Below are positions 24,550 to 40,428 of a DNA stretch of 64,000 nt, in pieces. Numbering within the stretch: the stretch's first letter is position 1; each line of letters starts with the position of its first letter. The notes under the pieces were generated by a model that saw nothing but the letters and a program-made list of their open reading frames with translations, did not search any database and had not been told where the DNA came from. Source of the DNA: Draconibacterium mangrovi (GTDB lineage Bacteria > Bacteroidota > Bacteroidia > Bacteroidales > Prolixibacteraceae); assembly GCF_010586825.1 (NCBI RefSeq), contig NZ_JAAAGB010000005.1, forward strand, positions 124,001 through 188,000, given 5' to 3'. The position numbers and the translations under genes were made by a program.

Positions 24550-24863
24550 TGGAACGACTGGCTTTTAAAATGTACCTCAACGAGGGGCAAAAGGAGGAAT
24601 ATAAAAAACGACACGCTGAAATTTGGCCTGAGCTGAAACAATTGCTAAAAGAGGCCGGAATAAGCGAATACTCCATTTTTTTGGATGACGAAACAAACAC
24701 CTTGTTTGCGTTTCAGAAGGTAATTGGCGACAGTGGTTCGCAGGATTTGGAGCAAACAGAAATTGTACAAAAGTGGTGGGCTTATATGAAAGATATCATG
24801 AAATCAAATCCGGATAATTCGCCTGTTTCGATTCCGCTTGAGGAAGTATTTTTTATGGAATAA
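24549..24863 (+). CDS. rhaM: L-rhamnose mutarotase
   Basis: This 104-residue dimeric alpha-beta barrel protein interconverts alpha and beta L-rhamnopyranose. His22 in EEYKKRHAEIWPEL matches the catalytic His22 of E. coli RhaM in number and context. The QKWWAYMKDIM stretch carries the conserved paired tryptophan/tyrosine. Full length. It lies between rhaT and rhaA and overlaps rhaT by one base, so it is part of the same transcript. Confidence 0.95.
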   Translation: MERLAFKMYLNEGQKEEYKKRHAEIWPELKQLLKEAGISEYSIFLDDETNTLFAFQKVIGDSGSQDLEQTEIVQKWWAYMKDIMKSNPDNSPVSIPLEEVFFME

Positions 24864-24881
24864 AACGATTAAGTAAATTAT

Positions 24882-26141: not shown

Positions 26142-26158
26142 GTTGAGTTTATAATTTG

Positions 26159-26200
26159 AATCCTTTTTTGCCTGATAATAAGGTGGAAAAGGATTTTTTT
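26159..26200 (+). terminator. Intercistronic terminator/attenuator after rhaA
   Basis: AATCCTTTT and AAAAGGATT (9-bp arms) close a loop that contains a short CCT/AGG helix, and a T-run follows. It lies between rhaA and the FGGY kinase gene, where partial termination would set the isomerase:kinase ratio. Confidence 0.6.
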
Positions 26201-26210
26201 ACCTGCAAAA

Positions 26211-27572
26211 ATGACCGAAGTAATAGCAGTTTTCGACATAGGAAAAACCAACAAAAAAATATTGTTGTTCGACAGTAACTTCAAAGTTGTAAAACAACAC
26301 GAAGAGAAGTTCCCGGTGATATCCGACGATGATGGATTTGAGTGCGACAATATTGATCTGATAACATCATGGATAAGAAAAAGCCTGGAAGAAATTGTCG
26401 CCGGTAACGAATACGATTTGAAAGGTGTGAATTTCTCAACTTACGGCGCATCGCTGATGTTTTTAGATGAGAAAGGGCAACGTCTGACACCGGTTTACAA
26501 CTATTTAAAGGAGATTCCTGAAACGATTGCAGCGGGTCTTTTTGAACAGTATGGTGGGAAAAATGAGTTTTGCCGAAAAACTGCCAGTCCTGCTTTGGGG
26601 CTGTTGCTGAATTCCGGAATTCAGATTTTATGGATGAAAGACCAGAAAACAGCGGTTTACGAAAAGGCAAAATCTGTTTTACATTTCCCACAATATTTAT
26701 CGTACACATTATCAAACGAAATTGTATCGGAACCTACATCGATAGGTTGTCACACCTTTATGTGGGATTTCGATCAAATGAAATACCATCAGTGGATTTC
26801 GGATAACGAAATTGCTTTACCGGAGCCAATAAACAACGATGTGGTTTTCCCGGCCGATGTGGCAGGAAAAGAAGTAAAAGTAGGAACCGGTATTCATGAT
26901 AGTTCGGCATCACTAGTGCCTTATCTAAAAGCCAGTCCGGCTAAATTTATCCTTGTTTCAACCGGAACATGGTGTATCAATATGAATCCATACAACGAGG
27001 AGCCTTTAACTGCCAGTGAACTGGAGCAGGACTGCTTGTGTTTCCTTACGCCAAATAAAGAGCAGGTGAAATCTTCGCGTTTGTTCATGGGGCATTTCCA
27101 CGAAGTTTGGGCCGAAAAACTGGCCAAACATTTCGATGTCGCGCAAGACAGATTTAAAAAAGTGAAAAACGATCAGGAATTGGTTGATGCGCTTTCAAAC
27201 AAATACGGCGAGGCTTCCGTATATTTCCCCAATGGCAAGGAAAGTTTTGAAGAGGGGCTGAAGGCAGTTGACCTGAGTGTTTTTGCGAATTACGAAGAAG
27301 CTTACACCAAGTTGATGATCGATCTTACGGCACTCTGTTTAACCAGTATTAATCTGGCCGTTCCTGAAAATGATGATACCAAGATTCTTTATGTTTCAGG
27401 AGGTTTTGCGCGCAACCCGATTTTTATCGAGTTGCTGAAAAAAAGTTTCCCTGCTAAAAAAGTTCTGATTTCAGAAATTGACAACTCCAGTGCATTGGGA
27501 GCAGCAATGGTTATTTCCGATACATTGTCGGAAGCCGATGTTGCAAATCTTGATCTTGGGATTCAGGAGTAA
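26211..27572 (+). CDS. FGGY-family sugar kinase, probable L-rhamnulokinase
   Basis: This 453-residue kinase of the FGGY/ASKHA fold has the N-terminal phosphate loop IAVFDIGKTNKKILLFD, STYGASLMFLD, the second phosphate motif VSTGTWCINM, and the adenosine-binding LYVSGGFARNP with a final SSALGAAM. It is shorter than E. coli RhaB (489) and divergent from it, but its place directly after rhaA makes L-rhamnulose the expected substrate. It would make L-rhamnulose 1-phosphate for the aldolases. An alternative is a related ketose kinase. Confidence 0.85.
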   Translation: MTEVIAVFDIGKTNKKILLFDSNFKVVKQHEEKFPVISDDDGFECDNIDLITSWIRKSLEEIVAGNEYDLKGVNFSTYGASLMFLDEKGQRLTPVYNYLKEIPETIAAGLFEQYGGKNEFCRKTASPALGLLLNSGIQILWMKDQKTAVYEKAKSVLHFPQYLSYTLSNEIVSEPTSIGCHTFMWDFDQMKYHQWISDNEIALPEPINNDVVFPADVAGKEVKVGTGIHDSSASLVPYLKASPAKFILVSTGTWCINMNPYNEEPLTASELEQDCLCFLTPNKEQVKSSRLFMGHFHEVWAEKLAKHFDVAQDRFKKVKNDQELVDALSNKYGEASVYFPNGKESFEEGLKAVDLSVFANYEEAYTKLMIDLTALCLTSINLAVPENDDTKILYVSGGFARNPIFIELLKKSFPAKKVLISEIDNSSALGAAMVISDTLSEADVANLDLGIQE

Positions 27573-27621
27573 GCACAGGACATTTTACCGTACCGACAGC
27601 TAACAGTTTAAAATATATAAC

Positions 27622-28917
27622 ATGAGAAATTTGAATACGAAATGGATGCATCCGCGCGACCAGATCATCATGATTATTGATAAGATCTACAAAGGAGGGT
27701 TGACTACAACTTCCGGCGGTAATATTTCGATAATCGACGACGACGGGGATGTGTGGGTAACACCTTCGGCAATCGACAAAGGAACGCTGCGTGCGACAGA
27801 TATTATTTGTGTAAAAAAAGACGGAACCATTGATGGGCGTCATAAGCCGTCATCGGAATATCCGTTTCATATTGCAATTTACAAATGTCGTCCGGAGATT
27901 AAGGCTGTAATTCATGCGCACCCGCCGGCATTGGTTTCGTTTAGTATTGTTCGTCAAATTCCTGATACCAATGTAATTCCACAGGCAAAACATGTTTGCG
28001 GACCAATTGGTTATGCACCATACGCTCTGCCTGGAAGTAATGAACTCGGCGATGTAATTGCTGATGAGTTCGCAAAAGGTGTGAACGCAGTAATTATGGA
28101 AAACCACGGAACAGTTGTAGGTGGTGCCGATTTAAGTGATGCCTATCAGCGTTTCGAGACCATGGAATTTTGTGCCCGTACCTTGATTAACGGAAGCACA
28201 ATTGGTAAACCCAATTATCTGTCGGATGAGCAGATCGATGCATTTGAAAATCAGATTCCAAGGTTGTTGCCGGAGATGACGAAAGTGGAACATCCTTCTG
28301 ATGAACGAGCCATTCGGGAGCAAATACAGCGTATTGTTTTACGTGCCTGCGATCAGGGAATGATGATCAGTTCATACGGAACAGTATCGGTGCGCTGGAA
28401 GGGCGATGATTTCCTGATCACGCCAACAAATGTAGCACGCTGGGATATTCAGCTAAAAGACATTGTGCAGATTAAAGATGGCAAACGTGAGCCCGGAAAA
28501 ATTCCGAGTCGTTCAACCTGGCTGCACCAGGAGATTTACAAACGCTTCCCACACATCAATTCCATCATTCTTACACAAACGCCTTACCTGATGGCATATA
28601 GCGTAACAGGTGAGAAAATCGATGTTCGTACGATTCCTGAGAGTTGGATCTTCCTTCAGGATATTCCAAATGTGCCGTTCGGATCGCATTTTGCAGGCGA
28701 AGAAACCATTTTGAATACTTTGGGTGAAAATACACCGGCGGTCATCATTAACAACGATTCAGTATTGGTAACCGGCGATAAACTGCTGGGAACATTCGAT
28801 AAACTGGAAGTTGCTGAGTTTAGTGCCAAATCACTGACTATGGGCGCTTCACTTGGGAAATTGGTTCCGATCAATCAGGAACAGATAGAGGATTTAAGAA
28901 AGAAATTTCTATCCTAA
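27622..28917 (+). CDS. Two-domain class II aldolase/adducin protein
   Basis: This 431-residue protein consists of two class II aldolase-like halves. The first half (~10-215) keeps the metal site: Glu79, His98 and His100 in VIHAHPP, and His162 in ENHGT. The second (~225-431) shows the same fold (SSYGTVSVRWKGDDFLITPTN, TWLHQEIYKRFPHINSIILTQTP) but has Thr-Gln-Thr-Pro where the HAHP metal ligands should be and NNDS in place of ENHG. It is therefore a catalytic domain fused to a decayed copy. As the last gene after rhaA and the kinase it could cleave L-rhamnulose 1-phosphate, although a RhaEW enzyme is also encoded at 36694. Confidence 0.85.
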   Translation: MRNLNTKWMHPRDQIIMIIDKIYKGGLTTTSGGNISIIDDDGDVWVTPSAIDKGTLRATDIICVKKDGTIDGRHKPSSEYPFHIAIYKCRPEIKAVIHAHPPALVSFSIVRQIPDTNVIPQAKHVCGPIGYAPYALPGSNELGDVIADEFAKGVNAVIMENHGTVVGGADLSDAYQRFETMEFCARTLINGSTIGKPNYLSDEQIDAFENQIPRLLPEMTKVEHPSDERAIREQIQRIVLRACDQGMMISSYGTVSVRWKGDDFLITPTNVARWDIQLKDIVQIKDGKREPGKIPSRSTWLHQEIYKRFPHINSIILTQTPYLMAYSVTGEKIDVRTIPESWIFLQDIPNVPFGSHFAGEETILNTLGENTPAVIINNDSVLVTGDKLLGTFDKLEVAEFSAKSLTMGASLGKLVPINQEQIEDLRKKFLS

Positions 28918-29158: not shown

Positions 29159-29878
29159 TTAAAACGTTCCAAAAATAGCGTACTTCTCGCTGTTGCAATA
29201 CACCTGGCTGTAGAGGAAAAAGCCCTCACGGCTGGTTTCCATCTTGCGGTTAATATGAAGTATCGGATGGCCCTCTTTTACATTCAGGTATTCCTGAATC
29301 TTCTTGTCAGCAAGAATGGCCATCAATCGCTGCTCACCACCGGTAACTTCTATGTCATACATCGTGCGCAGTATGTTGAACAGTGATTTGTTCTCCAGGT
29401 TTCGGCTGATAAAACGCCGCAGGTTAATGTTGGGCATCATGGTAATATCATAAAAAACCGGCTGCTTGTTCATAATGCGTAGTCGTTCGAAATAAATACA
29501 GCCAAATTCTTCTTCGTCATTCAGTAGCGGGTATGCCAGATTCGAAGTGTCCCATTGCCGGATCTCCGGTTTTACAATAATCTCCGTAATAAGGTTTTCC
29601 TGTCCCACAGCGCTGGTGGTTCCTGATAGCGACAGAATTCCAACACCCTGCGGAACGCCCATTACAATACTTCCTTTTCCCTGTTTCTTTTTAATGTAAC
29701 CTTCGTGAACCAGGCGGTCAAGTGCCTTTCGTATAGTGGGGCGTGTCGTCTGATGTACCGCACAAAGTTCGTTTTCTGATGGGAGAATGTCTCCTTTTAA
29801 ATACACCCCATCTGATATGTGTTTGCGAATGATTTCGTAAACAACTTTGTATTGCGGTAGATTTTTGCTCAGACGCAT
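29159..29878 (-). CDS. GntR/HutC-type regulator with UTRA domain
   Basis: This regulator has about 239 residues from ATG 29878. The N-terminal winged helix (~5-75) reads YKVVYEIIRKHISDGVYLKGDILPSENELCAVHQTTRPTIRKAL, given here in parts around the recognition helix TTRPTIRKAL. The C-terminal UTRA effector domain (~85-235) includes LRIMNKQPVFYDITMMP and GHPILHINRKMET. A TATATTTG -7 box lies on the minus strand (29902-29909 on plus). It is divergent from the E2 gene, and the shared gap is full of TGTAAATACA-like palindromes typical of this subfamily. It probably represses the downstream catabolic run in response to a phosphorylated or free sugar intermediate. Confidence 0.92.
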   Translation of the reverse strand: MRLSKNLPQYKVVYEIIRKHISDGVYLKGDILPSENELCAVHQTTRPTIRKALDRLVHEGYIKKKQGKGSIVMGVPQGVGILSLSGTTSAVGQENLITEIIVKPEIRQWDTSNLAYPLLNDEEEFGCIYFERLRIMNKQPVFYDITMMPNINLRRFISRNLENKSLFNILRTMYDIEVTGGEQRLMAILADKKIQEYLNVKEGHPILHINRKMETSREGFFLYSQVYCNSEKYAIFGTF

Positions 29879-29927
29879 AATGATTCTTTTTTCTCGAGTG
29901 ACAAATATAAGCGATTTTCTCTTTAGA

Positions 29928-30037
29928 TGTAAATACAAAATTAAATAAATGTATTTACAAGTTACTTGTAAATGTGTTGAAAAGATTGTAAATTAGGGTT
30001 TTAAATAAAAACAAAGAATTAACTTGTAAATACAAGT
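29928..30037. promoter_or_regulatory. GntR operator cluster
   Basis: Three related sites are present: TGTAAATACA at 29928-29937; a perfect 21-bp palindrome at 29953-29973 (ATTTACAAGT, one T, ACTTGTAAAT); and ACTTGTAAATACAAGT at 30022-30037. All share the half-site ACTTGTA(A/T). The third overlaps the -33 element of the E2 promoter, and the first lies just upstream of the gntR -7 box. Confidence 0.88.
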
Positions 30038-30054
30038 AGGGTCATATAAGTTTG
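30024..30054 (+). promoter_or_regulatory. Promoter of the E2-E3-E1 run
   Basis: TTG at 30024-30026, a 20-bp spacer and TAAGTTTG at 30047-30054 match the Bacteroidota consensus exactly. The -7 box ends 18 bp before the ATG at 30073, and the -33 box lies inside the GntR palindrome. Confidence 0.8.
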
Positions 30055-30072
30055 TCAAAAATTAATAAAATT

Positions 30073-31386
30073 ATGGCTACACCGATAATAATGCCCCGCC
30101 AGGGGCAGTCTGTTGAATCCTGCATCTTTACCGAATGGACGAAAGAAGTGGGAGAGGAAGTGAAAAAGGGCGAGGCGCTCTTTGCTTATGAAACTGATAA
30201 GGCATCATTCGAGCAGGAAGCTGAGGAAGATGGTGTTTTATTGGCTGTGTTTTGCGAAGAAGGAGATGAGGTTCCTGTTTTGCAAACCATTGGCGTTATT
30301 GGCCAGCCTGGCGAAAACATAGATGAGTTTTCTGCCGGAACTGCACCTGCTGCCGCTGCTGAAGTAGAAGAAGAAGTGGAAGAAAAACCTGCTGAGAAAA
30401 AAGAAGAGCTTAAGGTTGTTCTGAAAGAAAAGGCTGAAGGTGAAAAAGTGAAAATTTCTCCTCGCGCCAAAAATCTGGCTGAGAAAGAAGCAGTTCCTTA
30501 CGAATCGATTGAAGGATCAGGTCCTAGTGGACGTGTAATAGAGCGCGATGTGAAAGCGTTTGCAGCATCGCAGCCAAAACTTTCGCCACTGGCAAAAGAA
30601 GTTGCCAAAGCCGAAGGTTTGGAAGCCGTAGGTACCGGAAGCGGGTTGGCAGGAACGGTTAAGGCGTCAGACCTTGGAACAAATCCGGTTTATGCCGGTG
30701 ATTTCGAAATCAAAAAAATGCCGCATATCCGAAAGCTGATTGCCAAAGCAATGCACCAATCGTTGCAGAACTCGGCGCAGTTAACTCACCATTTGGGTGC
30801 CGATGCAAGAAGATTATTGGCCCTACGTAAAGAAATTAAAGCCAATGAAGGTGCTCCGAATATTACATTAAACGATATGGTTTGTTTTGCCGTTATCAAA
30901 GCGCTGAAACAATTTCCTGATGTAAATGCACATTTCCTTGGAGATAGTGTGAAATATTTCAATAAAGTACATCTAGGTTTGGCCGTTGATACCGACCGAG
31001 GTTTGATGGTTCCTGTAATTAAAAATGCAGATGACCTGTCGATTATCGGACTGTCCAATCAGTTTAAAGAAGTTGCCGATGCCTGCCGTACCGGAAGTAT
31101 CGATCCTGAGCTGCTTTCTTCCGAGGCTGCATCGTTTACGGTTTCAAACCTCGGAAATTATGGCGTTGAAATGTTTACCCCGGTAATTAATCTTCCACAG
31201 GTAGCTATTCTGGGTGTAAATACAATTGTGCCGCGACCAAAAGATCTTGGTGATGGCGTTTACGGATTTGTGCCATACATGGGCTTGAGTTTGACTTACG
31301 ATCACCAGGCGCTTGATGGCGGAATGGCAACACGATTTGTGAAGCAGGTAGCTATTGAAATTGAAAACTTAACCTTTGACTATTAA
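30073..31386 (+). CDS. 2-oxoacid dehydrogenase E2 with tandem subunit-binding domains
   Basis: This acyltransferase has about 437 residues. Domain order: lipoyl domain 1-~78 (lipoylated Lys43 in YETDKASFE); an acidic Ala/Glu/Lys linker; peripheral subunit-binding domain ~126-162 (KISPRAKNLAEKEAVPYESI); a second similar domain ~169-203 (KLSPLAKEVAKAEGLEAVG); catalytic domain ~205-437 with His411 and Asp415 in HQALDGG. ATG 30073 is used because a TTG 21 bp upstream lies almost on the -7 box. It forms the core of a complex with E3 and E1 encoded next. The acyl substrate (pyruvate, branched-chain or other) cannot be read. Two binding domains in one E2 is unusual. Confidence 0.9.
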   Translation: MATPIIMPRQGQSVESCIFTEWTKEVGEEVKKGEALFAYETDKASFEQEAEEDGVLLAVFCEEGDEVPVLQTIGVIGQPGENIDEFSAGTAPAAAAEVEEEVEEKPAEKKEELKVVLKEKAEGEKVKISPRAKNLAEKEAVPYESIEGSGPSGRVIERDVKAFAASQPKLSPLAKEVAKAEGLEAVGTGSGLAGTVKASDLGTNPVYAGDFEIKKMPHIRKLIAKAMHQSLQNSAQLTHHLGADARRLLALRKEIKANEGAPNITLNDMVCFAVIKALKQFPDVNAHFLGDSVKYFNKVHLGLAVDTDRGLMVPVIKNADDLSIIGLSNQFKEVADACRTGSIDPELLSSEAASFTVSNLGNYGVEMFTPVINLPQVAILGVNTIVPRPKDLGDGVYGFVPYMGLSLTYDHQALDGGMATRFVKQVAIEIENLTFDY

Positions 31387-31393
31387 TACCGAA

Positions 31394-32755
31394 ATGAAGT
31401 ACGATTTAGCAATAATAGGTGCCGGACCGGGCGGATATGTTGCCGCTGAAAGAGCCGGAGCAAAGGGACTGAAAGTGGTTCTTTTCGAGAAGAAAGAACT
31501 TGGAGGTGTTTGTTTGAACGAAGGTTGTATTCCTACAAAAACATTGCTTTACGGAGCCAAGATTTACGATAGCGCAAAAAGCGGAAGTAAATACGGTGTG
31601 GAAGCGAACGATCTGTCGTTTAGCTTCGATAAAATGATGGCCCGTAAGAATAAAGTGGTAAAGAAATTGGTTGGCGGCGTTGGCTTGAAAATGAAGCAGT
31701 TTAACGTGGATGTAGTCAACGACGAAGCAATGATACAAAAGAGAGGTGTCGAAGGTATTGAGATTGAAGCAGGGGGTAAAGCCTATACTGCTGCTAATCT
31801 GATGATCTGTACCGGATCTGAAGCTTTTGTGCCCCCAATTCCCGGTGTTCAGGGTAATGAAGAGATTTTGACCAACCGCGAGATTTTGCAATTAAAAGAG
31901 CAGCCAAAATCGTTGGTGATCATCGGCGGAGGGGTTATCGGTATGGAGTTCGCCAGTATTTTTAACAGCCTTGGAACGAAGGTTACCATCATTGAAATGC
32001 TGGATGAGATACTGACCGGAATGGACAAAGGACAAAGTGCTATGTTGCGTCAGATGTACGCAAAAAAAGGCATCGAGTTCAATCTGTCGTCGAAAGTTAC
32101 CAAAGTTGACGGAACAAAAGTTACCTACGAAAAAGACGGGAAAGTAACAGAAATTGAAGGTGATAAAATATTGATGAGCGTTGGCCGCAAGCCGGTCATT
32201 ACAGGTTTTGGTCTTGAGAATTTAGGTGTCGAGTTGTTCAAAGGCGGAATTAAAGTCGATGAAAAAATGCGCACCAATATTCCTAACGTGTATGCAGCAG
32301 GCGATGTAACAGGGTTCTCATTGCTGGCACACACTGCCAGCCGCGAAGGCGAAGTGGTAGTAAATAACCTTTTAGGTCGCCCGGATAAAATGCGTTACAA
32401 TGCCATTCCAGGAGTGGTTTACACCAATCCTGAAATTTCAGGAGTAGGACTTACCGAAGAAACAGCAAAAGCAAAAGGAATCGACTATAAAATAGCTGAA
32501 CTGCCAATGGCTTACGCCGGACGATTTGTTGCCGAAAATGAAGGTGGCAGCGGATCGTGCAAAGTGTTGGTAGGTGCAAATTATGGCGAAGTACTGGGAG
32601 TTCACATGATTGGAAATCCATCGAGTGAAATGATCTACGGAGCCTGCATGGCCATAGAAGCCGAAATGACACTGAAAGAAATGGAAGAAGTGGTATTCCC
32701 ACATCCAACAGTTTCGGAGATATTTAAAGAAACCATTTTTAGTTTCGGTCATTAA
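31394..32755 (+). CDS. lpd: Dihydrolipoamide dehydrogenase (E3)
   Basis: This 453-residue FAD/NAD disulfide oxidoreductase has the FAD site IIGAGPGGYVAAERA, the redox disulfide in GGVCLNEGCIPTK (Cys40 and Cys45), the NAD site VIIGGGVIGMEFASIF, the second FAD motif VYAAGDVTG, and a C-terminal His437-Glu442 pair in HPTVSE. It reoxidises the lipoyl group of E2 and makes NADH. It starts 7 bp after E2, so co-translation is likely. It may be dedicated to this complex if the genome has another lpd. Confidence 0.95.
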   Translation: MKYDLAIIGAGPGGYVAAERAGAKGLKVVLFEKKELGGVCLNEGCIPTKTLLYGAKIYDSAKSGSKYGVEANDLSFSFDKMMARKNKVVKKLVGGVGLKMKQFNVDVVNDEAMIQKRGVEGIEIEAGGKAYTAANLMICTGSEAFVPPIPGVQGNEEILTNREILQLKEQPKSLVIIGGGVIGMEFASIFNSLGTKVTIIEMLDEILTGMDKGQSAMLRQMYAKKGIEFNLSSKVTKVDGTKVTYEKDGKVTEIEGDKILMSVGRKPVITGFGLENLGVELFKGGIKVDEKMRTNIPNVYAAGDVTGFSLLAHTASREGEVVVNNLLGRPDKMRYNAIPGVVYTNPEISGVGLTEETAKAKGIDYKIAELPMAYAGRFVAENEGGSGSCKVLVGANYGEVLGVHMIGNPSSEMIYGACMAIEAEMTLKEMEEVVFPHPTVSEIFKETIFSFGH

Positions 32756-32808
32756 ACACCATACTGACAAAGAAGAAAAACAAGTAAAAATTAATAAAAC
32801 AAAATATT

Positions 32809-35277
32809 ATGCCTAAGTCGCAATTTATTGATCCGGTTGAAGTAAGAAAACCGGGTTCAATTCAATTCAAAGAAATACCTGTAAATCAATACAACAAAAG
32901 TATTGAAGAGGAAAAAGCTAACTTTTCGAATGACGAATTCATCAATATCTTCCATGATATGTCGCTGATTCGTGAGTTTGAAACCATGTTGAATCTCATA
33001 AAAATCAAAGGAGAGTACGAAGGAATCGAGTACAACCATCCTGGCCCTGCTCACTTGTCAATCGGACAGGAATCGGCAGCTGTTGGTATGGCTTATCATT
33101 TGGGAGTTGAGGATTTTATTTTTGGTTCGCACCGTTCTCACGGCGAGATTTTGGCCAAAGGTATGTCGGCTATCCACAAAATGAGCGACGACGAATTGAT
33201 GGACGTAATGACCAACTTCTTTGATGGTACAATTCTGAATATTGTAAAAGAAGGTCACGAAGGCAACGTAAAATCGTTGGCGCGTCGTTTCCTTATTTAC
33301 GGAACACTGGCCGAGATTTTTGCCCGTGAAACAGGTTTCAATAAAGGTTTAGGTGGATCGATGCACGCTTTCTTTACACCGTTTGGAGTATATCCGAACA
33401 ACGCTATTGTTGGTGGTTCGGGCGACATTGCTGTGGGTGCTGCATTATTCAAAAAAGTAAATAAAAAAGATGGTATTGTGGTTGCCAATATTGGTGATGC
33501 TTCTATGGCTTGCGGTCCTGTTTGGGAAGGTCTGGCTTTTGCATCGATGGACCAGTTTGAGCAGCTTTGGGAAGGCGCTTACAAAGGTGGTCTGCCAATC
33601 ATTTTTAATATCATGAATAACCAGTACGGAATGGGTGGACAAACCTGTGGTGAAACTATGGGTTACGACATTGCCGCTCGTATTGGTGCCGGTGTAAACC
33701 GCGACAGTATGCACGCCGAGCGTGTTGACGGTTACAATCCGCTGGCAGTTATTGATGCGTACAAACGCAAAATGGAACTGCTGAAAGACAAAAAAGGTCC
33801 GGTTCTGCTCGACGTTTTAACTTACCGTTACAGTGGTCACTCACCTTCTGATGCTTCATCGTATCGTAGTAAAGAGGAAGTGGAAGCATGGGAAAAACAG
33901 GATTGTATCGCTTCGTATGCGAGCGAGTTGGTTGGAGCAGGAGTTGCAAAAGAAGCAGAGCTTGCTGATATTAAAGCCGACATCGTTGAGTTGATGAAAT
34001 ACGCGATGAAACTGGCTATTGATGAAAAAGTTTCTCCTCACATGGATATGGAAAAATATCCTGAACTGATCGGTGACATGATGTTTTCGAACGAGAGTTT
34101 GGATAAAATGGAAGACCGCGAAGTTGAGGTAAATCACCCAATGGAAGAAAATCCACGTGTACAGCAGCTGGCTAAAAAGGAGCGTTTTGCTTTTGATGCC
34201 AACGGAAAACCATTCTCAAAAATAAAACAATACCAATTGCGCGACGGTATTTTCGAAGCTGTAGTTGATCGTTTTTACAAAGATCCAACATTGGTAGCTT
34301 ACGGTGAAGAAAACCGCGATTGGGGTGGTGCATTTGCCGTTTACCGCGGACTAACTGAAGCTCTTCCGTACAATCGTTTATTTAACTCGCCAATTTCAGA
34401 GGCGTCGATTATTGGTACTGCCATTGGTTATGCCATGTGTGGCGGACGCGTAATTCCTGAAATTATGTATTGCGACTTCCTCGGACGTTGTGGTGATGAG
34501 GTTTTCAACCAGATGCCGAAGTGGCAGGCCATGTCGGGTAACGTAATTAAAATGCCGGTGGTAGTTCGCGTTTCTGTAGGATCTAAATACGGTGCACAGC
34601 ACTCGCAGGACTGGACTTCGCTGGTAGCGCATATTCCGGGATTGAAAGTGGTATTCCCTGTAACTCCGTACGATGCCAAAGGATTAATGAACACTGCATT
34701 ACAGGGAACCGATCCTGTGATTTTCTTCGAAAGTCAGCGTATTTACGACATTGGCGAGCAATTCCACGAAGGCGGAGTGCCGGAAGGATATTACGAAATC
34801 CCGTTTGGCGAGCCGGATGTAAAACGCGAAGGAAAAGACATTACAATTCTTACCATTGGTGCAACATTGTACCGCGCTCTTGAAGCTGCTGATAAATTGA
34901 AAGAAGAATACGGAATGGAAGCAGAAGTTATCGACTCCCGTTCGCTTGTTCCTTTCAATTACGAAAAAGTGTTGGAGTCGGTGAAAAAGACCGGACGAAT
35001 TATCATCTCGGGCGATGCCAACTCACGTGGTTCATTCCTGAATGATTTGGCAAGAAATATTACCGAACTGGCATTCGACGAATTGGATGCACCGCCTGTA
35101 GTTGTTGGTTCGCGTAACTGGATCACGCCGGCGTACGAACTGGAAGAGTATTTCTTCCCACAAGTTGACTGGTTCCTGGATGCGATTCACGAAAAAATCG
35201 TTCCATTGAAAGGTCATGTTGTGAAAAACAACTATACAAACGCCGAGCAAATCCGCAGAAATAAGTTAGGTATATAA
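32809..35277 (+). CDS. Fused E1 alpha/beta 2-oxoacid dehydrogenase
   Basis: This 822-residue thiamine-diphosphate decarboxylase has both E1 halves in one chain. The alpha part (~35-440) has GSGDIAVGAALF, NIGDASMACGPVWEGL and GLPIIFNIMNNQYGMGG, which bind TPP-Mg. The beta part (~475-822) has YGEENRDWGGAFAVYRGL, FNSPISEASIIGTAIGYA, SKYGAQHSQDWTSL and EVIDSRSLVPFNYE. It decarboxylates a 2-oxoacid and acylates the E2 lipoyl arm. Fused E1 chains are common in Bacteroidota and are used for pyruvate or branched-chain oxoacids. Placement in a sugar locus favours pyruvate or another sugar-derived oxoacid. Confidence 0.92.
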   Translation: MPKSQFIDPVEVRKPGSIQFKEIPVNQYNKSIEEEKANFSNDEFINIFHDMSLIREFETMLNLIKIKGEYEGIEYNHPGPAHLSIGQESAAVGMAYHLGVEDFIFGSHRSHGEILAKGMSAIHKMSDDELMDVMTNFFDGTILNIVKEGHEGNVKSLARRFLIYGTLAEIFARETGFNKGLGGSMHAFFTPFGVYPNNAIVGGSGDIAVGAALFKKVNKKDGIVVANIGDASMACGPVWEGLAFASMDQFEQLWEGAYKGGLPIIFNIMNNQYGMGGQTCGETMGYDIAARIGAGVNRDSMHAERVDGYNPLAVIDAYKRKMELLKDKKGPVLLDVLTYRYSGHSPSDASSYRSKEEVEAWEKQDCIASYASELVGAGVAKEAELADIKADIVELMKYAMKLAIDEKVSPHMDMEKYPELIGDMMFSNESLDKMEDREVEVNHPMEENPRVQQLAKKERFAFDANGKPFSKIKQYQLRDGIFEAVVDRFYKDPTLVAYGEENRDWGGAFAVYRGLTEALPYNRLFNSPISEASIIGTAIGYAMCGGRVIPEIMYCDFLGRCGDEVFNQMPKWQAMSGNVIKMPVVVRVSVGSKYGAQHSQDWTSLVAHIPGLKVVFPVTPYDAKGLMNTALQGTDPVIFFESQRIYDIGEQFHEGGVPEGYYEIPFGEPDVKREGKDITILTIGATLYRALEAADKLKEEYGMEAEVIDSRSLVPFNYEKVLESVKKTGRIIISGDANSRGSFLNDLARNITELAFDELDAPPVVVGSRNWITPAYELEEYFFPQVDWFLDAIHEKIVPLKGHVVKNNYTNAEQIRRNKLGI

Positions 35278-35290
35278 TCTTGGTTAGTTG

Positions 35291-35350
35291 AAAAGCATAG
35301 TGTGAAAAAGTTTTGGTAGGAAAGGATTTTTTATATTCACACTTGCTTTT
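35291..35350 (+). terminator. Possible weak hairpin after the E1 gene
   Basis: AAAAGCATAGTGTGAA pairs with TTCACACTTGCTTTT with one bulge over a ~29-nt loop. It lies between the E1 and PHP genes and lacks a long T-run, so it is more likely a partial terminator or an RNA-stability element. Confidence 0.35.
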
Positions 35351-35372
35351 TAACCAATAACTGATAACTGAT

Positions 35373-36590
35373 ATGAATTTTCTAAAAGAATACCCGGATA
35401 TTGAAACATTAATGCGAATTGGAGGCGATGTTAGCGTTCCTCATGTTAATGGTCACATCCATACACCATACTCATTTAGCTCTTTCGATAATATTGCGCA
35501 GATTTTTGATCTGGCAAAAGACGAAGAGGTTGATGTGTTGGGGATTAACGACTTTTTTGTTTCCGACGGTTATAACGAATTTTATAATTACGCGGTAAAA
35601 TACGGCGTATTTCCGTTGTTTAATGTTGAGTTTATCGGGCTGATTCCGGAGCTTCAACGCCGCAACGTTACCATCAATGATCCAAATAATCCGGGGCGCA
35701 TTTATTTCAGCGGTAAAGGGCTGAATTATCCTTACCGCGTTTCGGAAGAAAGCAAAAAGTTTTTGGATGATTTGATTGCTGAAAGCCAGAAACAAGTGGC
35801 GAAGATGATTGAAAAGGTGAACTATCTTTTGCAATCGATCTACCCGGAAATGAGCCTGACTTACGATGACATAAAATCGAAATACGCCAAAGAATTGGTG
35901 CGAGAAAGGCACATTGCCAAAGCTGTTCGTATTTTGGTGGAAGAGAACTATCCGAAAAAGTCGGGCAAAATGATGTTCTACACCGAACTTTTTGATGTGG
36001 AGCCCAAGTCGAATCCTGACGATATTCCTGCAATTGAAAACGAAATCCGCGGGAAATTGCTGAAAGCAGGGGGTACGGCATTTGTTCCTGAATCACCTGC
36101 ATCATTCCCGCCGGTGGAGCGCATAAGCGAGTATATTTTGGATGCTGGTGGAATTCCCTGTTATCCGGTTTTGCTTGATGACAGAAAAGGTAATCTGATC
36201 ACTTATTTCGAACGTGACTGGGAATTTATGGATGAGCAATTAAAGGCCATGAACGTGCACATGATCGAACTGATTCCGTCGCGGAATTCAGTACAGAAAC
36301 TGCGAGAGTTCATTAAATATTTCAGCAAAAAAGGATATGTAATTTCTCTGGGATCGGAACACAATACACCGGGAGTTTTCCCTCTCGAAGTGAAAGTTGA
36401 CGGAGAAGATACTCTGCCCGAAGATTTGAAAAAAGTATCGTACAACGGAGCTTGTGTTATCGCAGCCCATCAATACCTAAAAACCCATGGCGAAGAAGGA
36501 TTTGTTTTGGCAAACGGCGATCGTACTGAGCGTTCCGTTACCGATCTTATCACCCTGGGTAACGCGGTTATAAAAGAAATGATCGCATAA
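35373..36590 (+). CDS. PHP-domain metal-dependent hydrolase-like protein
   Basis: This 405-residue protein has a PHP signature near the start: VNGHIHTPYSFSSFDNI (His28, His30), followed by DEEVDVLGINDFFVSDGYNEF. A late ISLGSEHNTPGVFPLEV supplies another conserved His. These residues would bind a metal cluster for phosphoester or related hydrolysis. The middle (~100-230) is an inserted helical region without known motifs. It has no signal peptide. It lies between the E1 and RhaEW genes in the GntR-controlled run, so a role in deoxysugar breakdown (for example a phosphatase or lactonase) is inferred but unproven. Confidence 0.75.
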   Translation: MNFLKEYPDIETLMRIGGDVSVPHVNGHIHTPYSFSSFDNIAQIFDLAKDEEVDVLGINDFFVSDGYNEFYNYAVKYGVFPLFNVEFIGLIPELQRRNVTINDPNNPGRIYFSGKGLNYPYRVSEESKKFLDDLIAESQKQVAKMIEKVNYLLQSIYPEMSLTYDDIKSKYAKELVRERHIAKAVRILVEENYPKKSGKMMFYTELFDVEPKSNPDDIPAIENEIRGKLLKAGGTAFVPESPASFPPVERISEYILDAGGIPCYPVLLDDRKGNLITYFERDWEFMDEQLKAMNVHMIELIPSRNSVQKLREFIKYFSKKGYVISLGSEHNTPGVFPLEVKVDGEDTLPEDLKKVSYNGACVIAAHQYLKTHGEEGFVLANGDRTERSVTDLITLGNAVIKEMIA

Positions 36591-36595
36591 AAAAA

Positions 36596-36683
36596 TTCAC
36601 GCAGAGAGCGCAGCTATTCGCAGAGAAATAGAAGAAGAAAATCTGCGCTGATCTGCGAAATCTGCGAGCAAAATTCAAAGCGA
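36596..36683. repeat. Intergenic TTCACGCAGAG-type repeat (copy 2)
   Basis: It starts with the same TTCACGCAGAGAGCGC found at 28994 and continues with CTGCG-rich words (ATCTGCGCTGATCTGCG). It fills the gap between the PHP and RhaEW genes and ends 10 bp before the RhaEW start, so it is transcribed in the leader of that gene. Confidence 0.75.
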
Positions 36684-36693
36684 AAAAGAAAAA

Positions 36694-38655
36694 ATGGAAG
36701 GATTAGAAAATCTTATTAAGATATCGCAATTCTATGGCAAAAATCCGGAGATGGTGATTGCCGGAGGTGGAAACACCTCGTACAAAAACGACGAAAATAT
36801 TTGGGTGAAAGCCAGTGGTCATGCATTGGCCACAATTACCGAAGATGGTTTTGCAAAGCTCGATCGCAAAAAGCTTGGGCTGATCTCAGAAAAAACATAC
36901 AGCGCTGATCTGTTTGAGCGCGAACGCCAGATTAAAGACGACCTGATGGAAGCTACCATCACAAAAGACCGCCGTCCGTCGGTAGAAACATCCATGCACG
37001 ATGCCATTGAATATGCTTATGTGGTGCATCTGCATCCAACAAAAGTAAATGGTTTGATGTGTGGCAACGAGGTTGAAAAATATCTCGGTGAGTTGTTTGG
37101 CAACCAGGTGGTTTATATTCCATACATCGATCCGGGTTATGTACTGTTTAAAGAGGTTGAAAAGCAATTGGCCAAATTCAACGCAGAAAAAGGGAAAGCT
37201 GCGCAGATCATCTTTTTACAAAACCACGGAATTTTTGTGGCCGCCGATTCTATCGATGAGATTGAAACGATTTACAACGAAGTATTTGCAAAACTGAACG
37301 GTGCGTTGAAAGAGGAATTGTCGGCAGAAACACTTCCAATTCGCGATGATATTGCTGAATTTGTTCCTGCTATTCGAATGATGGTTTCTGAAGAGGAAAT
37401 CAAGACGCTGAAGCTTCGTAACAATGCAGTAATTGCACAATTCGCAAAAGATGCACAAGCATTTGAAAAGGTGGCCAGGCCATTTACGCCTGACCTGATC
37501 GTTTACTGCAAATCGAAATATGTATTTATTGAGCAAACCGAAAACGTTGAATACCTGTTGAAAGAGGCCAAAGAAAAGATCGCGGCTTTTATTTCAGCAA
37601 ACGGCTTTGCACCAAAAGTAATTTTGCTGAAAGGAATTGGTTTGTTGGCTGTTGGCGATCATGCGGCACAGTGCAACACTATTTTGGATGTGTTTGAAGA
37701 TGCGATGAAGATCAGCGCTTATTCGGAGTCGTTCGGCGGTCAGCATTTTATGACGCCTGAACAAATTGCATTTATCGATACCTGGGAGGTGGAGAATTAC
37801 CGCCGTAAAATTGCTGCCGGAACATCTGTTGGCCGCGTTCAGAATAAAACCATAATTGTAACAGGAGCTGCCATGGGATTTGGCGAAGGTATTGCCCGCC
37901 ATTTAACCGAAGAAGGTGCCAATATTGTTGTTGCTGATATTAACGAAGAGGTTGGAAATAAAACGGCTGCCGAACTGGCTGCCATGAAAGGCAACAACAG
38001 GGCGATTTTTGTAAAAACCAATGTGGCCGATATGGATAGCCTGGCCAATTTGATGAAGGAAACCGTTGCTACTTTTGGTGGTTTGGATGTGTTTGTAAGC
38101 AATGCAGGCGTGTTACGTGCGGGTGGTCTGGATGAAATGACTCCGGAGAATTTCGAGTTTGTTACCAAAATCAACTACAACGCTTATTTCTATTGTACAA
38201 AAGTAGCCTCTAAAATATTGAAACTTCAAAATGCTTTTAAACCGGATTATTACTCTGATATCATTCAAATCAACTCAAAATCGGGCTTAAAAGGAAGCAA
38301 GAAGAATTTCGCCTATGCCGGTGGTAAATTCGGTGGAATCGGGCTTACTCAGTCGTTTGCATTGGAACTGGCACCCGAAAAAATTAAGGTGAATTCGGTT
38401 TGTCCGGGTAACTTTTACGAAGGTCCGCTGTGGAGCGATCCTGAAAACGGATTGTTTATTCAGTACCTGAATGCAGGGAAAGTGCCGGGTGCAAAAACAA
38501 TCGACGATGTGAAGCAGTTTTATTTAGACCAGGTGCCACTTGGAAAAGGATGTTCGCCAAAAGACGTGGTGAAAGGAATTTTATACCTGATCGACCAGGA
38601 GAATGAAACCGGACAGGCGCTGCCAATCTCGGGTGGACAGTCGATGTTACACTAG
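36694..38655 (+). CDS. rhaEW: Bifunctional L-rhamnulose-1-phosphate aldolase / L-lactaldehyde dehydrogenase
   Basis: This 653-residue fusion has two parts. Residues 1-~370 are a class II aldolase (ETSMHDAIEY; His112 and His114 in VVHLHP; His178 in LQNHG), which splits L-rhamnulose 1-phosphate into DHAP and L-lactaldehyde. Residues ~383-653 are a short-chain dehydrogenase (TGAAMGFG at 390-397, NAG at 470, active-site Tyr541-x-x-x-Lys545), which oxidises lactaldehyde to L-lactate with NAD. This architecture is the RhaEW type known from Chloroflexus-type and Bacillus-type pathways. It makes a separate RhaD unnecessary here. It lies in the GntR-controlled run, apart from rhaA. Confidence 0.9.
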   Translation: MEGLENLIKISQFYGKNPEMVIAGGGNTSYKNDENIWVKASGHALATITEDGFAKLDRKKLGLISEKTYSADLFERERQIKDDLMEATITKDRRPSVETSMHDAIEYAYVVHLHPTKVNGLMCGNEVEKYLGELFGNQVVYIPYIDPGYVLFKEVEKQLAKFNAEKGKAAQIIFLQNHGIFVAADSIDEIETIYNEVFAKLNGALKEELSAETLPIRDDIAEFVPAIRMMVSEEEIKTLKLRNNAVIAQFAKDAQAFEKVARPFTPDLIVYCKSKYVFIEQTENVEYLLKEAKEKIAAFISANGFAPKVILLKGIGLLAVGDHAAQCNTILDVFEDAMKISAYSESFGGQHFMTPEQIAFIDTWEVENYRRKIAAGTSVGRVQNKTIIVTGAAMGFGEGIARHLTEEGANIVVADINEEVGNKTAAELAAMKGNNRAIFVKTNVADMDSLANLMKETVATFGGLDVFVSNAGVLRAGGLDEMTPENFEFVTKINYNAYFYCTKVASKILKLQNAFKPDYYSDIIQINSKSGLKGSKKNFAYAGGKFGGIGLTQSFALELAPEKIKVNSVCPGNFYEGPLWSDPENGLFIQYLNAGKVPGAKTIDDVKQFYLDQVPLGKGCSPKDVVKGILYLIDQENETGQALPISGGQSMLH

Positions 38656-38713
38656 GAATTGAAGGCAAAAGTAGAAGGAGTGACCCGTGTGAAATTGTCC
38701 GGGAAACCTTAAG

Positions 38714-38964
38714 GAATGCATGGAGAGCCGTTAAAAACGCATGAGGAACGACAAGGAATGAACGGGAAACGTTAAGGAGCTCATGGGGAACGTTAAGGAA
38801 TGAATGGAGAACGTTAAGGAGCCCATGAGGAACGTTAAGGAACTCATGAGGAACGACAAGGAATGCACGGTGAACGTTAAGGAACCCATGAGGAACGTTA
38901 AGGAACCCATGAGGAACGTTAAGGAACGAACGGGAAACGTTAAGGAACGCATGGAAAACATAAG
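38714..38964. repeat. 12-unit tandem array with exact 21-bp period
   Basis: Twelve consecutive units (eleven of 21 bp, the last of 20) share the core GGAACGTTAAGGAA with ATG-containing variable bases between. A further partial unit precedes the array. Substitutions are confined to the same unit positions (AACGTT versus AACGACA or AAACGTT). The period equals two turns of B-DNA, so the AACGTT palindromes lie on one helix face. A plus frame reads NVKEPMR repeats, but there is no independent sign of translation. Confidence 0.92.
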
Positions 38965-39065
38965 GATTTCCGGCAAGCCGGTAAAAATAACCGTTAATAA
39001 AGCAAAGTAGTAAAAAAGCAGAGGAACAAAAATTGGAAAGGATTATTGATAAGTGATGAAAAAGC

Positions 39066-39137
39066 TTCGAGCCACGAGCTACGAGTTTCGAGATAGGAGC
39101 TTCAATCTGCATCAATCTAATTCAACCTTTTCAATCT
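39066..39137. repeat. CGAG-word and TCAATCT-heptamer stretch
   Basis: CGAG words recur at 39068-39093. They are followed by TCAATCT at 39102, 39112 and 39131, just upstream of the dehydrogenase ATG (39154). The same heptamer occurs in the hutI-ftcD gap. Probably a degenerate dispersed element. Confidence 0.5.
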
Positions 39138-39153
39138 GAAAATATAAAAGAAA

Positions 39154-40428
39154 ATGAAAACAAAAGCAGTTCGATTATACGGTAAAAAAGACCTTCGGGT
39201 AGAGGAATTTGAATTACCTGAAATAAGTGATGATGAGATTTTGGCCAAGGTGGTAACCGACAGTTTGTGTATGTCGAGTTACAAAGCTGCCAACCAGGCG
39301 AGCGATCACAAACGTATTCCGGATGATATTGCTGAAAATCCGATTATGATTGGGCACGAGTTTGCCGGAGAGATTGTTGAAGTAGGAGCCAACTGGCAGG
39401 ATAAATTTACGGCAGGACAAAAATTTTCCATTCAACCGGCAATTTATTACGAAGATGGGCCGGTGGGCGTATTGAGTGCTCCGGGTTATTCGTACAAATA
39501 CATTGGCGGTGATGCCACTTACGTGATCATTCCAAAAGATGTGCTGGTGCAGGATTGTTTGCTGGCCTATGAAGGACCTGGTTATTACCCTGCGTCGCTG
39601 GCTGAACCCTTAAGCTGTGTTATTGGTGCAATGCATGCCAATTACCACACCACTGCCGGAAGCTACGTGCACAAAATGGAAATTGTTGACGGTGGTAAAA
39701 TGGCCATTCTTGCCGGTGTTGGTCCAATGGGACTGGCAGCTATCAATTACGTTTTGCGCCGCGAAGATAGAAAACCATCATTGATGGTGGTTACCGATAT
39801 CGACCAGACAAGGCTTGACCGTGCAGCTGAGCTCTACACCGTTGAGTTCGCGAAAGAGCGCGGAATCGAATTGAAATACATCAATACTGCAGAAATGGCT
39901 GATCCGGTAACCGGATTAAAAGAATTAACCGGTGGTAAAGGTTACGACGATGTATTTGTTTTTGCTCCGGTTGCTCCGGTAGTAGAGCAGGGCGATGCAA
40001 TTCTTGGTTTCGATGGTTGTCTTAACTTTTTCGCCGGCCCATCGAACACCGAATTCACGGCAAAAATGAATTTCTATAACGTACATTACGCTTACACACA
40101 TATTGTTGGAACATCAGGCGGTAACACCGATGACATGAAAGAAGCGCTGGAAATTATGACTGCAGGACTGGATCCGGCAGGATTGGTAACCCACATTGGT
40201 GGTTTAAATGCAGTACCTGAAGCAACTTTGAATCTTCCAAATATTCCTGGTGGTAAGAAATTGATTTATACACATTTTGATTTTCCGCTTACAGCAATTG
40301 CTGAATTTGAAGAGAAAGGGAAAGAAAATCCGGTGTATGCCGAGCTGGATAAGCTTTGCAAAAAGTACATGGGATTGTGGAATGTGGAAGCAGAAGCCTT
40401 TTTATTGGAAAATGGCGATAAACTCTAG
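39154..40428 (+). CDS. Zinc-type medium-chain alcohol/polyol dehydrogenase
   Basis: This 424-residue MDR-family oxidoreductase has catalytic zinc ligands Cys39 (DSLCMSSYK) and the His68-Glu69 pair in GHEFAGEIVEVG, and a Rossmann segment AILAGVGPMGLAAINYVL. The four-cysteine structural zinc lobe is missing. It resembles sugar-phosphate or polyol dehydrogenases of the L-sorbose-1-phosphate reductase type. It is the last gene of the GntR-controlled run, 498 bp after RhaEW, and may act on lactaldehyde/propanediol or a ketose phosphate. The substrate is uncertain. Confidence 0.82.
   Translation: MKTKAVRLYGKKDLRVEEFELPEISDDEILAKVVTDSLCMSSYKAANQASDHKRIPDDIAENPIMIGHEFAGEIVEVGANWQDKFTAGQKFSIQPAIYYEDGPVGVLSAPGYSYKYIGGDATYVIIPKDVLVQDCLLAYEGPGYYPASLAEPLSCVIGAMHANYHTTAGSYVHKMEIVDGGKMAILAGVGPMGLAAINYVLRREDRKPSLMVVTDIDQTRLDRAAELYTVEFAKERGIELKYINTAEMADPVTGLKELTGGKGYDDVFVFAPVAPVVEQGDAILGFDGCLNFFAGPSNTEFTAKMNFYNVHYAYTHIVGTSGGNTDDMKEALEIMTAGLDPAGLVTHIGGLNAVPEATLNLPNIPGGKKLIYTHFDFPLTAIAEFEEKGKENPVYAELDKLCKKYMGLWNVEAEAFLLENGDKL

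What the first reader, a model, noticed from the sequence alone, without database searches (positions are those of the whole stretch)
29159..40428. GntR-controlled module: 2-oxoacid dehydrogenase complex with PHP protein, RhaEW aldolase/dehydrogenase and alcohol dehydrogenase
A GntR/UTRA regulator faces a same-strand run encoding E2, E3, fused E1, a PHP-domain protein, RhaEW and an MDR dehydrogenase, beside the rhaTMA operon. Family knowledge gives DHAP plus lactaldehyde to lactate through RhaEW. A dedicated oxoacid dehydrogenase in a rhamnose locus is not standard. It suggests direct coupling of deoxysugar cleavage to acyl-CoA formation, possibly with an unusual oxoacid, with the PHP protein in an unassigned step.
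Basis: partly seen in the sequence, partly recalled or inferred. Interest (0 to 1): 0.75.

Follow-up and report, generated by a model that had tools for sequence, protein, structure and literature searches.

The report
Sugar-phosphate module with acetoin-type dehydrogenase
Beside the rhamnose genes of a bacterium close to Draconibacterium lies a conserved gene set that looks built to shift the keto group of a sugar phosphate and then split it straight to acetyl-CoA, which would be a new way to use deoxy sugars.

Summary
The seven genes are real and at the stated coordinates: GntR divergent from E2-E3-fused E1, then PHP, aldolase-SDR and MDR. The host is close to Draconibacterium. The set is conserved: E1 in 110 of 140 family genomes, PHP in 104, both in 100; in 62 of those 100 they lie within 11.2 kb.

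Two labels change. The MDR is a full-length relative (about 50%) of L-sorbose-1-phosphate reductase SorE. The SDR half fits sorbitol-6-phosphate dehydrogenase (223 bits) far better than RhaW (134), and the aldolase half is missing in 22 of 65 loci opened, so this is not RhaEW. E1 is a separate fused subfamily, nearer acetoin dehydrogenase than the genome's other E1s; five rhizobial relatives opened sit in sugar loci beside a lipoyl protein and an alpha/beta hydrolase. The genome also has PFOR.

Best reading (0.4): rhamnulose- or fuculose-1-phosphate is reduced by MDR, re-oxidised at the other end by SDR to a 1-deoxyketose-6-phosphate, and cleaved by E1-E2-E3 to acetyl-CoA and a tetrose phosphate. 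Families and linkage are shown; substrates, stereochemistry and the PHP step are inferred. Most relatives show no rha/fuc genes nearby, the main weakness.

The parts
29159..29938 (-). GntR/UTRA regulator, divergent from the operon; likely start at the ATG of MRLSKN (about 29878)
   Evidence: Pfam GntR 61.7 and UTRA 67.2 bits; a relative's ORF begins at MRLNKN (L140)
29947..29962 (.). weaker operator copy AAATGTATTTACAAGT (2 mismatches)
30022..30037 (.). GntR operator palindrome ACTTGTAAATACAAGT, the only perfect copy in the genome
   Evidence: core perfect in 23 of 25 fetched GntR-E2 gaps, 1 mismatch in the other 2
30052..31386 (+). E2: one lipoyl domain, E3-binding domain, acyltransferase domain
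   Evidence: Pfam; ETDKA and DHQALDG motifs
31376..32755 (+). E3 dihydrolipoyl dehydrogenase
   Evidence: TIGR01350 495.5 bits, above cut-off 408.8
32809..35277 (+). fused E1 alpha/beta, 822 aa, subfamily tied to sugar loci
35373..36590 (+). PHP-domain protein, lineage-specific, presumed metal-dependent hydrolase or phosphatase
   Evidence: PF02811 29.4 bits, cut-off 26.4; 104 of 140 family genomes, one weak hit dropped; H28, H30, D60, E86, H180, H330, H366 invariant in 23 sequences
36694..38655 (+). class II aldolase fused to a sorbitol-6-phosphate-dehydrogenase-like SDR
39154..40428 (+). SorE-like MDR (ketose-1-phosphate/polyol-phosphate oxidoreductase)
   Evidence: 49.4-50.1% identity over the whole query to three annotated sorE products; alignment
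23422..28917 (+). neighbouring rhaT-rhaM-rhaA-FGGY kinase-tandem aldolase run, the likely source of rhamnulose-1-phosphate
   Evidence: the same run without the tandem aldolase abuts the module in L136, L139 and L140

Best explanation
A sugar-phosphate catabolic module. Input is a 6-deoxyketose-1-phosphate made by the neighbouring rha or fuc enzymes. The SorE-like MDR reduces the C2 ketone to a 6-deoxyhexitol phosphate; the sorbitol-6-phosphate-dehydrogenase-like SDR oxidises C5, giving a 1-deoxyketose-6-phosphate, a methyl ketone with an acyloin group like acetoin. The fused E1 with TPP cleaves it between C2 and C3; E2 and E3 carry the two-carbon unit to acetyl-CoA and NADH, and a tetrose-4-phosphate is released. 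If the MDR keeps SorE stereochemistry, rhamnulose-1-P and fuculose-1-P both give acetyl-CoA plus D-threose-4-phosphate, because the centre in which they differ becomes the aldehyde carbon. The tetrose phosphate is then handled by FSA/transaldolase-type enzymes and possibly PHP. Shown: gene identities at family level, conserved linkage, the palindrome. Inferred: substrates, order of steps, products, stereochemistry, that GntR binds the palindrome, and the roles of PHP and the aldolase half.
For: MDR about 50% over full length to SorE, whose loss blocks reduction of L-sorbose-1-P to sorbitol-6-P (PMC12817954, passages). SDR best match is a sorbitol-6-P dehydrogenase model, 223 v 134 bits for the RhaW part, and PDB 5o3z. 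So two polyol-phosphate-type enzymes stand side by side, as in the sor operon. E1: 16 of 30 listed plasmid rows at 52.5-54.9%, the rest 31-35%; in all 5 of the 16 loci that I opened the next two genes are a lipoyl protein and an alpha/beta hydrolase, with sugar kinases, sugar-type regulators or sugar ABC genes around; the one hydrolase scanned against NCBIfam is nearest the acetoin dehydrogenase acetyltransferase, 180 bits, below its cut-off of 307. E1 is 33-37% identical to one AcoAB pair and 20-27% to the genome's two other fused E1s. The two non-family Bacteroidota genomes found with E1 have beside it the same MDR and a mannitol-1-P-dehydrogenase-like protein (below its cut-offs); one also has E2 and a transaldolase. 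FSA-like follows the trio in 18 of 65 loci, and an ortholog is elsewhere in this genome. In L136 and L139 rhaT-rhaM-rhaA-kinase abut the module with no class II aldolase in the stretch besides the fusion; in L140 the module lies between rha and fuc genes. PDH E1 mutants make the deoxyketose DXP, the reverse chemistry (PMC3424233, passages). E1 and FucI: both 101, E1 only 9, FucI only 12, neither 18.
Against: rha or fuc genes lie within the fetched stretch in only 12 of 65 loci, 11 of them Draconibacterium-like. The window's rha and fuc operons carry their own class II aldolases, so a second outlet is not required. The FucI association is not corrected for kinship or completeness. No palindrome with up to 2 mismatches stands directly before the stand-alone trios or the rha/fuc operons. 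SDR is only 25-28% identical to the two SDRs of sor-like operons compared, and the Serratia one belongs to another sorbitol-6-P dehydrogenase model. E1 is as close to three E1 pairs of other rhizobial plasmids (34-37%) as to AcoAB; no characterised PDH E1 was in the tree, which warned of long branches. Its substrate pocket was not modelled. G259 has no E2 or E3 beside E1. The kinase called rhaB is presumed. PHP has no assigned step.
Confidence: 0.4

Rival explanations
1. The fused protein is a RhaEW: it cuts rhamnulose-1-P to DHAP and lactaldehyde, oxidises the latter to lactate, and the E1-E2-E3 complex is a dedicated pyruvate dehydrogenase downstream of lactate.
For: Fold and fusion order as in RhaEW, 256 bits in all; aldolase motifs present; rha run without another aldolase in the stretch in L136 and L139. 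RhaEW activity is proven for C. aurantiacus and B. subtilis (PMC3870299, passages).
Against: SDR half fits sorbitol-6-P dehydrogenase far better than RhaW; aldolase half missing in 22 of 65 loci while SDR, MDR and PHP stay; true RhaEW is said to lie always in rha loci, this one mostly shows no rha genes nearby; a SorE-like MDR has no place in it; PFOR can serve pyruvate.
Confidence: 0.15
2. The complex acts on ordinary ketose phosphates (fructose-6-P, xylulose-5-P or another polyol-derived ketose) like a CoA-linked phosphoketolase, with MDR and SDR feeding hexitol phosphates and FSA/transaldolase handling erythrose-4-P.
For: MDR and SDR relatives act on sorbose and sorbitol phosphates; transaldolase-family partners; rhizobial relatives beside xylulokinase, fructokinase-like, ketose-3-epimerase-like and mannitol dehydrogenase genes; 53 of 65 loci show no rha/fuc genes in the stretch.
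Against: I know of no E1-lipoyl enzyme that does this (recalled, not searched); ordinary ketose phosphates need no special complex; Draconibacterium placement beside rha and fuc genes.
Confidence: 0.2
3. Same chemistry, but the natural substrate is 5-deoxyribulose-1-phosphate from 5'-deoxyadenosine; with SorE stereochemistry the product of MDR plus SDR would be exactly 1-deoxy-D-xylulose-5-phosphate, which E1 would cut to acetyl-CoA and glyceraldehyde-3-P.
For: Stereochemical fit (own working, no tool); wide spread in the family without sugar genes beside it; a shift of methylthioribulose-1-P that ends in DXP is known in R. rubrum by other enzymes (PMC4958253, passages).
Against: Deoxyadenosine salvage genes were not looked for; Draconibacterium placement points to hexoses; the module is absent from nearly all Bacteroidota sampled, most of which should also make 5'-deoxyadenosine (recalled).
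Confidence: 0.1
4. A plain alternative pyruvate or branched-chain oxoacid dehydrogenase whose neighbours are metabolically unrelated.
For: All catalytic parts of a 2-oxoacid dehydrogenase complex; the best models for E1 and E2 at family level are PDH-like.
Against: Below the PDH E1 alpha equivalog cut-offs (201.7 v 393.85); linked to the same MDR in genomes of another class; sugar loci in rhizobia.
Confidence: 0.1

Closest known systems
L-sorbose operon: SorE with its sorbitol-6-phosphate dehydrogenase
   Same: MDR about 50% identical to SorE over full length; paired with a sorbitol-6-phosphate-dehydrogenase-type SDR, so the same two-step shift of a keto group through a polyol phosphate
   Different: No PTS; SDR nearer the PRK12384 model than the PRK06171 model to which the Serratia sor SDR belongs, and fused to an aldolase or carrying an N-terminal extension; joined to E1-E2-E3, PHP and often an FSA-like gene
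Acetoin dehydrogenase complex (AcoABC plus E3)
   Same: E1 nearer to AcoAB than to the genome's other fused E1s; rhizobial relatives have a lipoyl protein and an alpha/beta hydrolase (AcoC-like in the one scanned) and in one locus LipA; proposed TPP cleavage of an acyloin to acetyl-CoA
   Different: Fused E1 with about 160 more residues, 33-37% identity, classical E2 here, sugar-phosphate-type neighbours, no acoR or acoX-like genes
RhaEW (YuxG) bifunctional rhamnulose-1-P aldolase/lactaldehyde dehydrogenase
   Same: Class II aldolase then SDR on one chain; near rha genes in Draconibacterium-like genomes
   Different: Far below the model cut-off, SDR of another type, aldolase half missing in 22 of 65 loci, mostly no rha genes nearby
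MTA-isoprenoid shunt of Rhodospirillum rubrum
   Same: A ketose-1-phosphate is isomerised so that a 1-substituted ketose-5-phosphate arises, leading to the 1-deoxyketose DXP
   Different: Done by a RubisCO-like protein and a cupin, not by two dehydrogenases; no cleavage to acetyl-CoA

Membership tests
RhaEW | Score over the curated model of the bifunctional aldolase/dehydrogenase | tested here: not met
   256.4 bits against cut-off 567.75
RhaEW | SDR half of the RhaW type | tested here: not met
   223 bits to sorbitol-6-P dehydrogenase, 134 to the RhaW part
RhaEW | Always encoded within rha loci | tested here: not met
   rha/fuc genes in the stretch in 12 of 65 loci; criterion from PMC3870299, passages
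RhaEW | Converts L-rhamnulose-1-P to DHAP and L-lactate | not testable with these tools
   needs an enzyme assay
SorE (L-sorbose-1-phosphate reductase) family | Full-length homology to SorE | tested here: met
   49.4-50.1% over 100% of the query to three annotated sorE products; alignment
SorE (L-sorbose-1-phosphate reductase) family | Reduces a ketose-1-phosphate to a hexitol-6-phosphate | not testable with these tools
   needs an enzyme assay
Sorbitol-6-phosphate dehydrogenase (PRK12384 equivalog) | Score over the curated model | tested here: not met
   best family, but 223 bits against cut-off 307; a works-like claim only
Acetoin dehydrogenase E1 | Operon with acoR/acoX, acoC and lipA | tested here: not met
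   not among the window's neighbours; an AcoC-like gene and, in one locus, lipA occur beside rhizobial relatives
Acetoin dehydrogenase E1 | Cleaves an acyloin with TPP and passes the acetyl unit to lipoyl | not testable with these tools
   needs an enzyme assay
Pyruvate dehydrogenase E1 | Score over PDH E1 alpha equivalog models | tested here: not met
   201.7 v 393.85 and 129.6 v 411.35
2-oxoacid dehydrogenase complex (general) | E1, E2 with lipoyl domain and catalytic HxxxDG, E3 with CxxxxC | tested here: met

The most novel reading that the evidence does not exclude
A new catabolic route for 6-deoxy sugars: keto-group transposition through a 6-deoxyhexitol phosphate, then acetoin-dehydrogenase-type cleavage of a 1-deoxyketose-6-phosphate to acetyl-CoA and a tetrose phosphate, giving rhamnose and fucose one common outlet without lactaldehyde.
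Probability: 0.33. Interest if true: 0.82.

Novelty: new variant of a known kind. Interest (0 to 1): 0.62.

Why it matters
If right, deoxy sugars such as fucose and rhamnose can be turned into acetyl-CoA without lactaldehyde, lactate or propanediol, which changes the fermentation products predicted for these bacteria. It would also give a function to a fused E1 subfamily that rhizobial plasmid records mostly call only an alpha-ketoacid dehydrogenase, and show that lipoyl-linked TPP complexes are used on sugar phosphates. It names cheap, decisive assays.

Tried and rejected
Rejected: RhaEW identity. Rejected: plain PDH. Rejected: an IolM-like inosose dehydrogenase for the MDR, suggested by the top NCBIfam hit at 65 bits, after SorE products gave 394-396 bits. 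Rejected: a GntR regulon that takes in rha and fuc; the two other 1-mismatch sites of the genome lie inside ORFs of unrelated look, and the reversed-pattern control also gave 1 site.

Led nowhere: AlphaFold model of PHP from 5 close sequences, mean pLDDT 47, so no fold search was made. PHP against PDB, best E 0.028; PHP in plasmids, no match; PHP in the phylum, 7 of 395 genomes, of which 6 are fragments at E 2.6e-4 to 8.7e-4 and one is the own genome. E1 in a class sample: only the own genome of 345. tblastn of the whole fusion in plasmids hit the 5000-record limit and was of little use. Nine of the ten paper searches looked for a published version and found none; of all papers listed I saw passages of four and only listings of the rest.
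Full report
What is there. The ORFs are as the finding says and Pfam agrees with the domain calls. The complex looks competent: lipoyl lysine and DHQALDG in E2, CLNEGC in E3, GDA...NN in E1. The nearest public relatives of PHP are Draconibacterium: 93% in D. orientale, 95% in D. sediminis, 93% and 83% in two uncultured Draconibacterium. That the window is from this group is inferred from the relatives; no tool names the genome.

Conservation. Within the family, PHP is matched in 105 of 140 genomes; I drop one 53-residue hit (G033), leaving 104. E1 is matched in 110 of 140. Both occur in 100, PHP alone in 4, E1 alone in 10, neither in 26; several of the single-gene genomes are incomplete or fragmented, but not all, and the odds ratio of 65 ignores kinship. 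Of the 100, 69 have both genes on one contig and 62 within 11.2 kb start to start; 31 have them on different contigs. I opened 65 relative loci, of 103 PHP-positive relatives: 4, 20, 2 and 39. The last 39 were picked because PHP and E1 were near each other, so they do not measure how often that is so. In all 65, PHP, SDR (or fusion) and MDR stand in that order; an FSA-like gene follows in 18. Where the two halves are merged the usual order is GntR, E2, (E3), E1, PHP, SDR, MDR, with exceptions such as L063; E3 is not found beside E2 in several genera. Outside the family E1 is rare: one further genome in a phylum sample of 296, none besides the own in a class sample of 345, 2 of 149 in the class of that further genome, itself included. 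MDR is likewise found in only the own and that genome of 296 at E 1e-30.

What the enzymes are. The MDR is not a generic alcohol dehydrogenase. In plasmids it finds annotated sorE products of Klebsiella, Serratia and Citrobacter at 49.4-50.1% identity over the whole query, and an E. coli zinc-binding dehydrogenase at 53.7%; the alignment is collinear with the catalytic GHE site. The SDR half was scanned alone: sorbitol-6-phosphate dehydrogenase (PRK12384) 223 bits, RhaD_aldol-ADH 134; best solved structure 5o3z, sorbitol-6-phosphate dehydrogenase. It is below the PRK12384 cut-off of 307, so I claim likeness, not membership; the SDR of the Serratia sor operon belongs to another model, PRK06171, and is only 25% identical. 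The aldolase half keeps its zinc motifs but is absent in 22 of 65 loci, with no match at E 1e-3 in the stretch; by the genus labels these are in seven genera. So the constant parts are PHP, SDR and MDR, and the aldolase is optional.

The E1. It scores far below the PDH E1 alpha cut-offs. Fourteen E1s were compared: eight of this subfamily from three lineages share 51-85%; identity to an acoAB pair from Mycetohabitans (locus) is 33-37%, to three E1 pairs from other rhizobial plasmids 34-37%, and to the two other fused E1s of this genome 20-27%. The tree groups the eight with full support, but it warns of long branches and holds no characterised PDH, so I use it only for the grouping. Of 30 plasmid rows listed (734 records matched), 16 are at 52.5-54.9% and the others at 31-35%. 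I opened 5 of the 16; in one of them E1 is annotated as two pieces. In all five the next two genes are a short lipoyl protein and an alpha/beta hydrolase; the one hydrolase scanned in NCBIfam is nearest the acetoin dehydrogenase acetyltransferase, at 180 bits, below the cut-off of 307. Around them are PfkB or FGGY kinases, sugar-type regulators and ABC genes; in two loci a mannitol dehydrogenase, in one lipoyl synthase, in one a gene like ketose 3-epimerases.

An independent lineage repeats the logic. In G259 the E1 (60%) is followed by the MDR (50%) and preceded by a protein like mannitol-1-phosphate dehydrogenase, without E2 or E3 in the run. In G592 the same kind of dehydrogenase, E2, E1, MDR and a transaldolase (over its cut-offs) form one run. 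The dehydrogenase is far below the MtlD cut-offs (93 to 110 bits), so its substrate is open. Still, a polyol-phosphate-type dehydrogenase, the SorE-like MDR and E1 travel together in both groups, with a transaldolase-family enzyme in part of each.

Link to deoxy sugars. In the window and in 12 of 65 loci, 11 Draconibacterium-like and G099 (L084), rha or fuc genes stand within the stretch; in one Draconibacterium-like locus (L142) and in the other 52 I saw none. In L136 and L139 rhaT-rhaM-rhaA-kinase abut GntR, with no class II aldolase in the stretch besides the fusion at E 1e-3 for three queries; in L140 the rha run likewise lacks the tandem aldolase, the module lies between it and fucI-fucK-aldolase, and the fuc aldolase is present. 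Whether a rhamnulose aldolase lies elsewhere in those genomes was not searched. FucI, verified as L-fucose isomerase at 1066 bits, was found in 113 of 140 genomes; with E1 the counts are both 101, E1 only 9, FucI only 12, neither 18. This is association, confounded by kinship and completeness.

Regulation. An 18-base palindrome AACTTGTA-NN-TACAAGTT marks the GntR-E2 gap. Its 16-base core is perfect in 23 of 25 fetched gaps and has one mismatch in two. In this genome it occurs once without mismatch; two one-mismatch sites lie inside ORFs, and the reversed pattern gives one site. With up to 2 mismatches it is not directly before the stand-alone trios or before the window's rha and fuc runs; scattered weaker copies occur elsewhere (L052, L054, L084). 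So GntR looks like a local regulator; its binding and its ligand are untested.

Mechanism. SorE reduces L-sorbose-1-P to sorbitol-6-P (PMC12817954, passages), and sorbitol-6-P dehydrogenase then makes fructose-6-P (recalled). The net effect carries the keto group to the other end. Applied to a 6-deoxyketose-1-phosphate this gives a methyl ketone beside a hydroxyl, which is what an acetoin-type E1 attacks. The reverse condensation has a precedent: mutated PDH E1 in E. coli makes enough DXP to rescue dxs mutants (PMC3424233, passages). With SorE's stereochemistry both L-rhamnulose-1-P and L-fuculose-1-P yield D-threose-4-P (own working, no tool). That would explain one module serving either operon. 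That PHP and FSA act on the tetrose phosphate or its isomers is a guess.

Alternatives and limits. The same logic on 5-deoxyribulose-1-P would give DXP itself, a striking fit that I cannot exclude. Ordinary ketose phosphates also remain possible. Nothing here measures a substrate. The genome has PFOR and a 2-oxoglutarate dehydrogenase E1, so acetyl-CoA from pyruvate need not depend on this complex.

Novelty. Nine paper searches of an open-access library gave no description of such a route; subscription papers are mostly missing there, so this is weak evidence. Each enzyme class is known; the combination is what is new.

Noticed in passing
27622-28917 (+): Tandem class II aldolase in the rha run: the first half keeps SSE, HAHP and NHG, the second has SRS, TQTP and NND in their place, so it has probably lost its zinc site.
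   Followed up: partly
38701-38954: Array of about 12 copies of a 21-base unit (GGGGAACGTTAAGGAACGCAT) in the gap between the aldolase-SDR and MDR genes; the gap is much shorter in some relatives.
   Followed up: no
42052-55425: Polysaccharide utilisation cluster (SusC/SusD, GH16, GH43, GH2, hybrid two-component regulator) between the module and the fuc run.
   Followed up: no
60888-62090 (+): The transporter at the end of the fuc run is of the Bcr/CflA MFS family, not the fucose permease that one would expect there.
   Followed up: partly
7996-9552 (+): Sulfatase gene, perhaps for sulfated glycans.
   Followed up: no
L114 4968-8337, L116 4932-9772, L117 4992-8398: Another E1 alpha/beta-E2 type in rhizobial plasmids, each behind an 'NAD(P)H-dependent oxidoreductase' gene; near GutM, PTS sorbitol and DeoC genes in L114, a sugar-binding regulator in L116, a MurR/RpiR regulator in L117: perhaps a second sugar-linked dehydrogenase complex.
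   Followed up: no
L093 12001-19047: Agrobacterium pAt15955: lipoyl synthase and mannitol dehydrogenase genes beside the fused E1.
   Followed up: partly
L108 5805-8216 (-): A lone fused E1 (803 aa) in the same genome, 24% identical to the finding's E1, without E2 beside it in the stretch.
   Followed up: no
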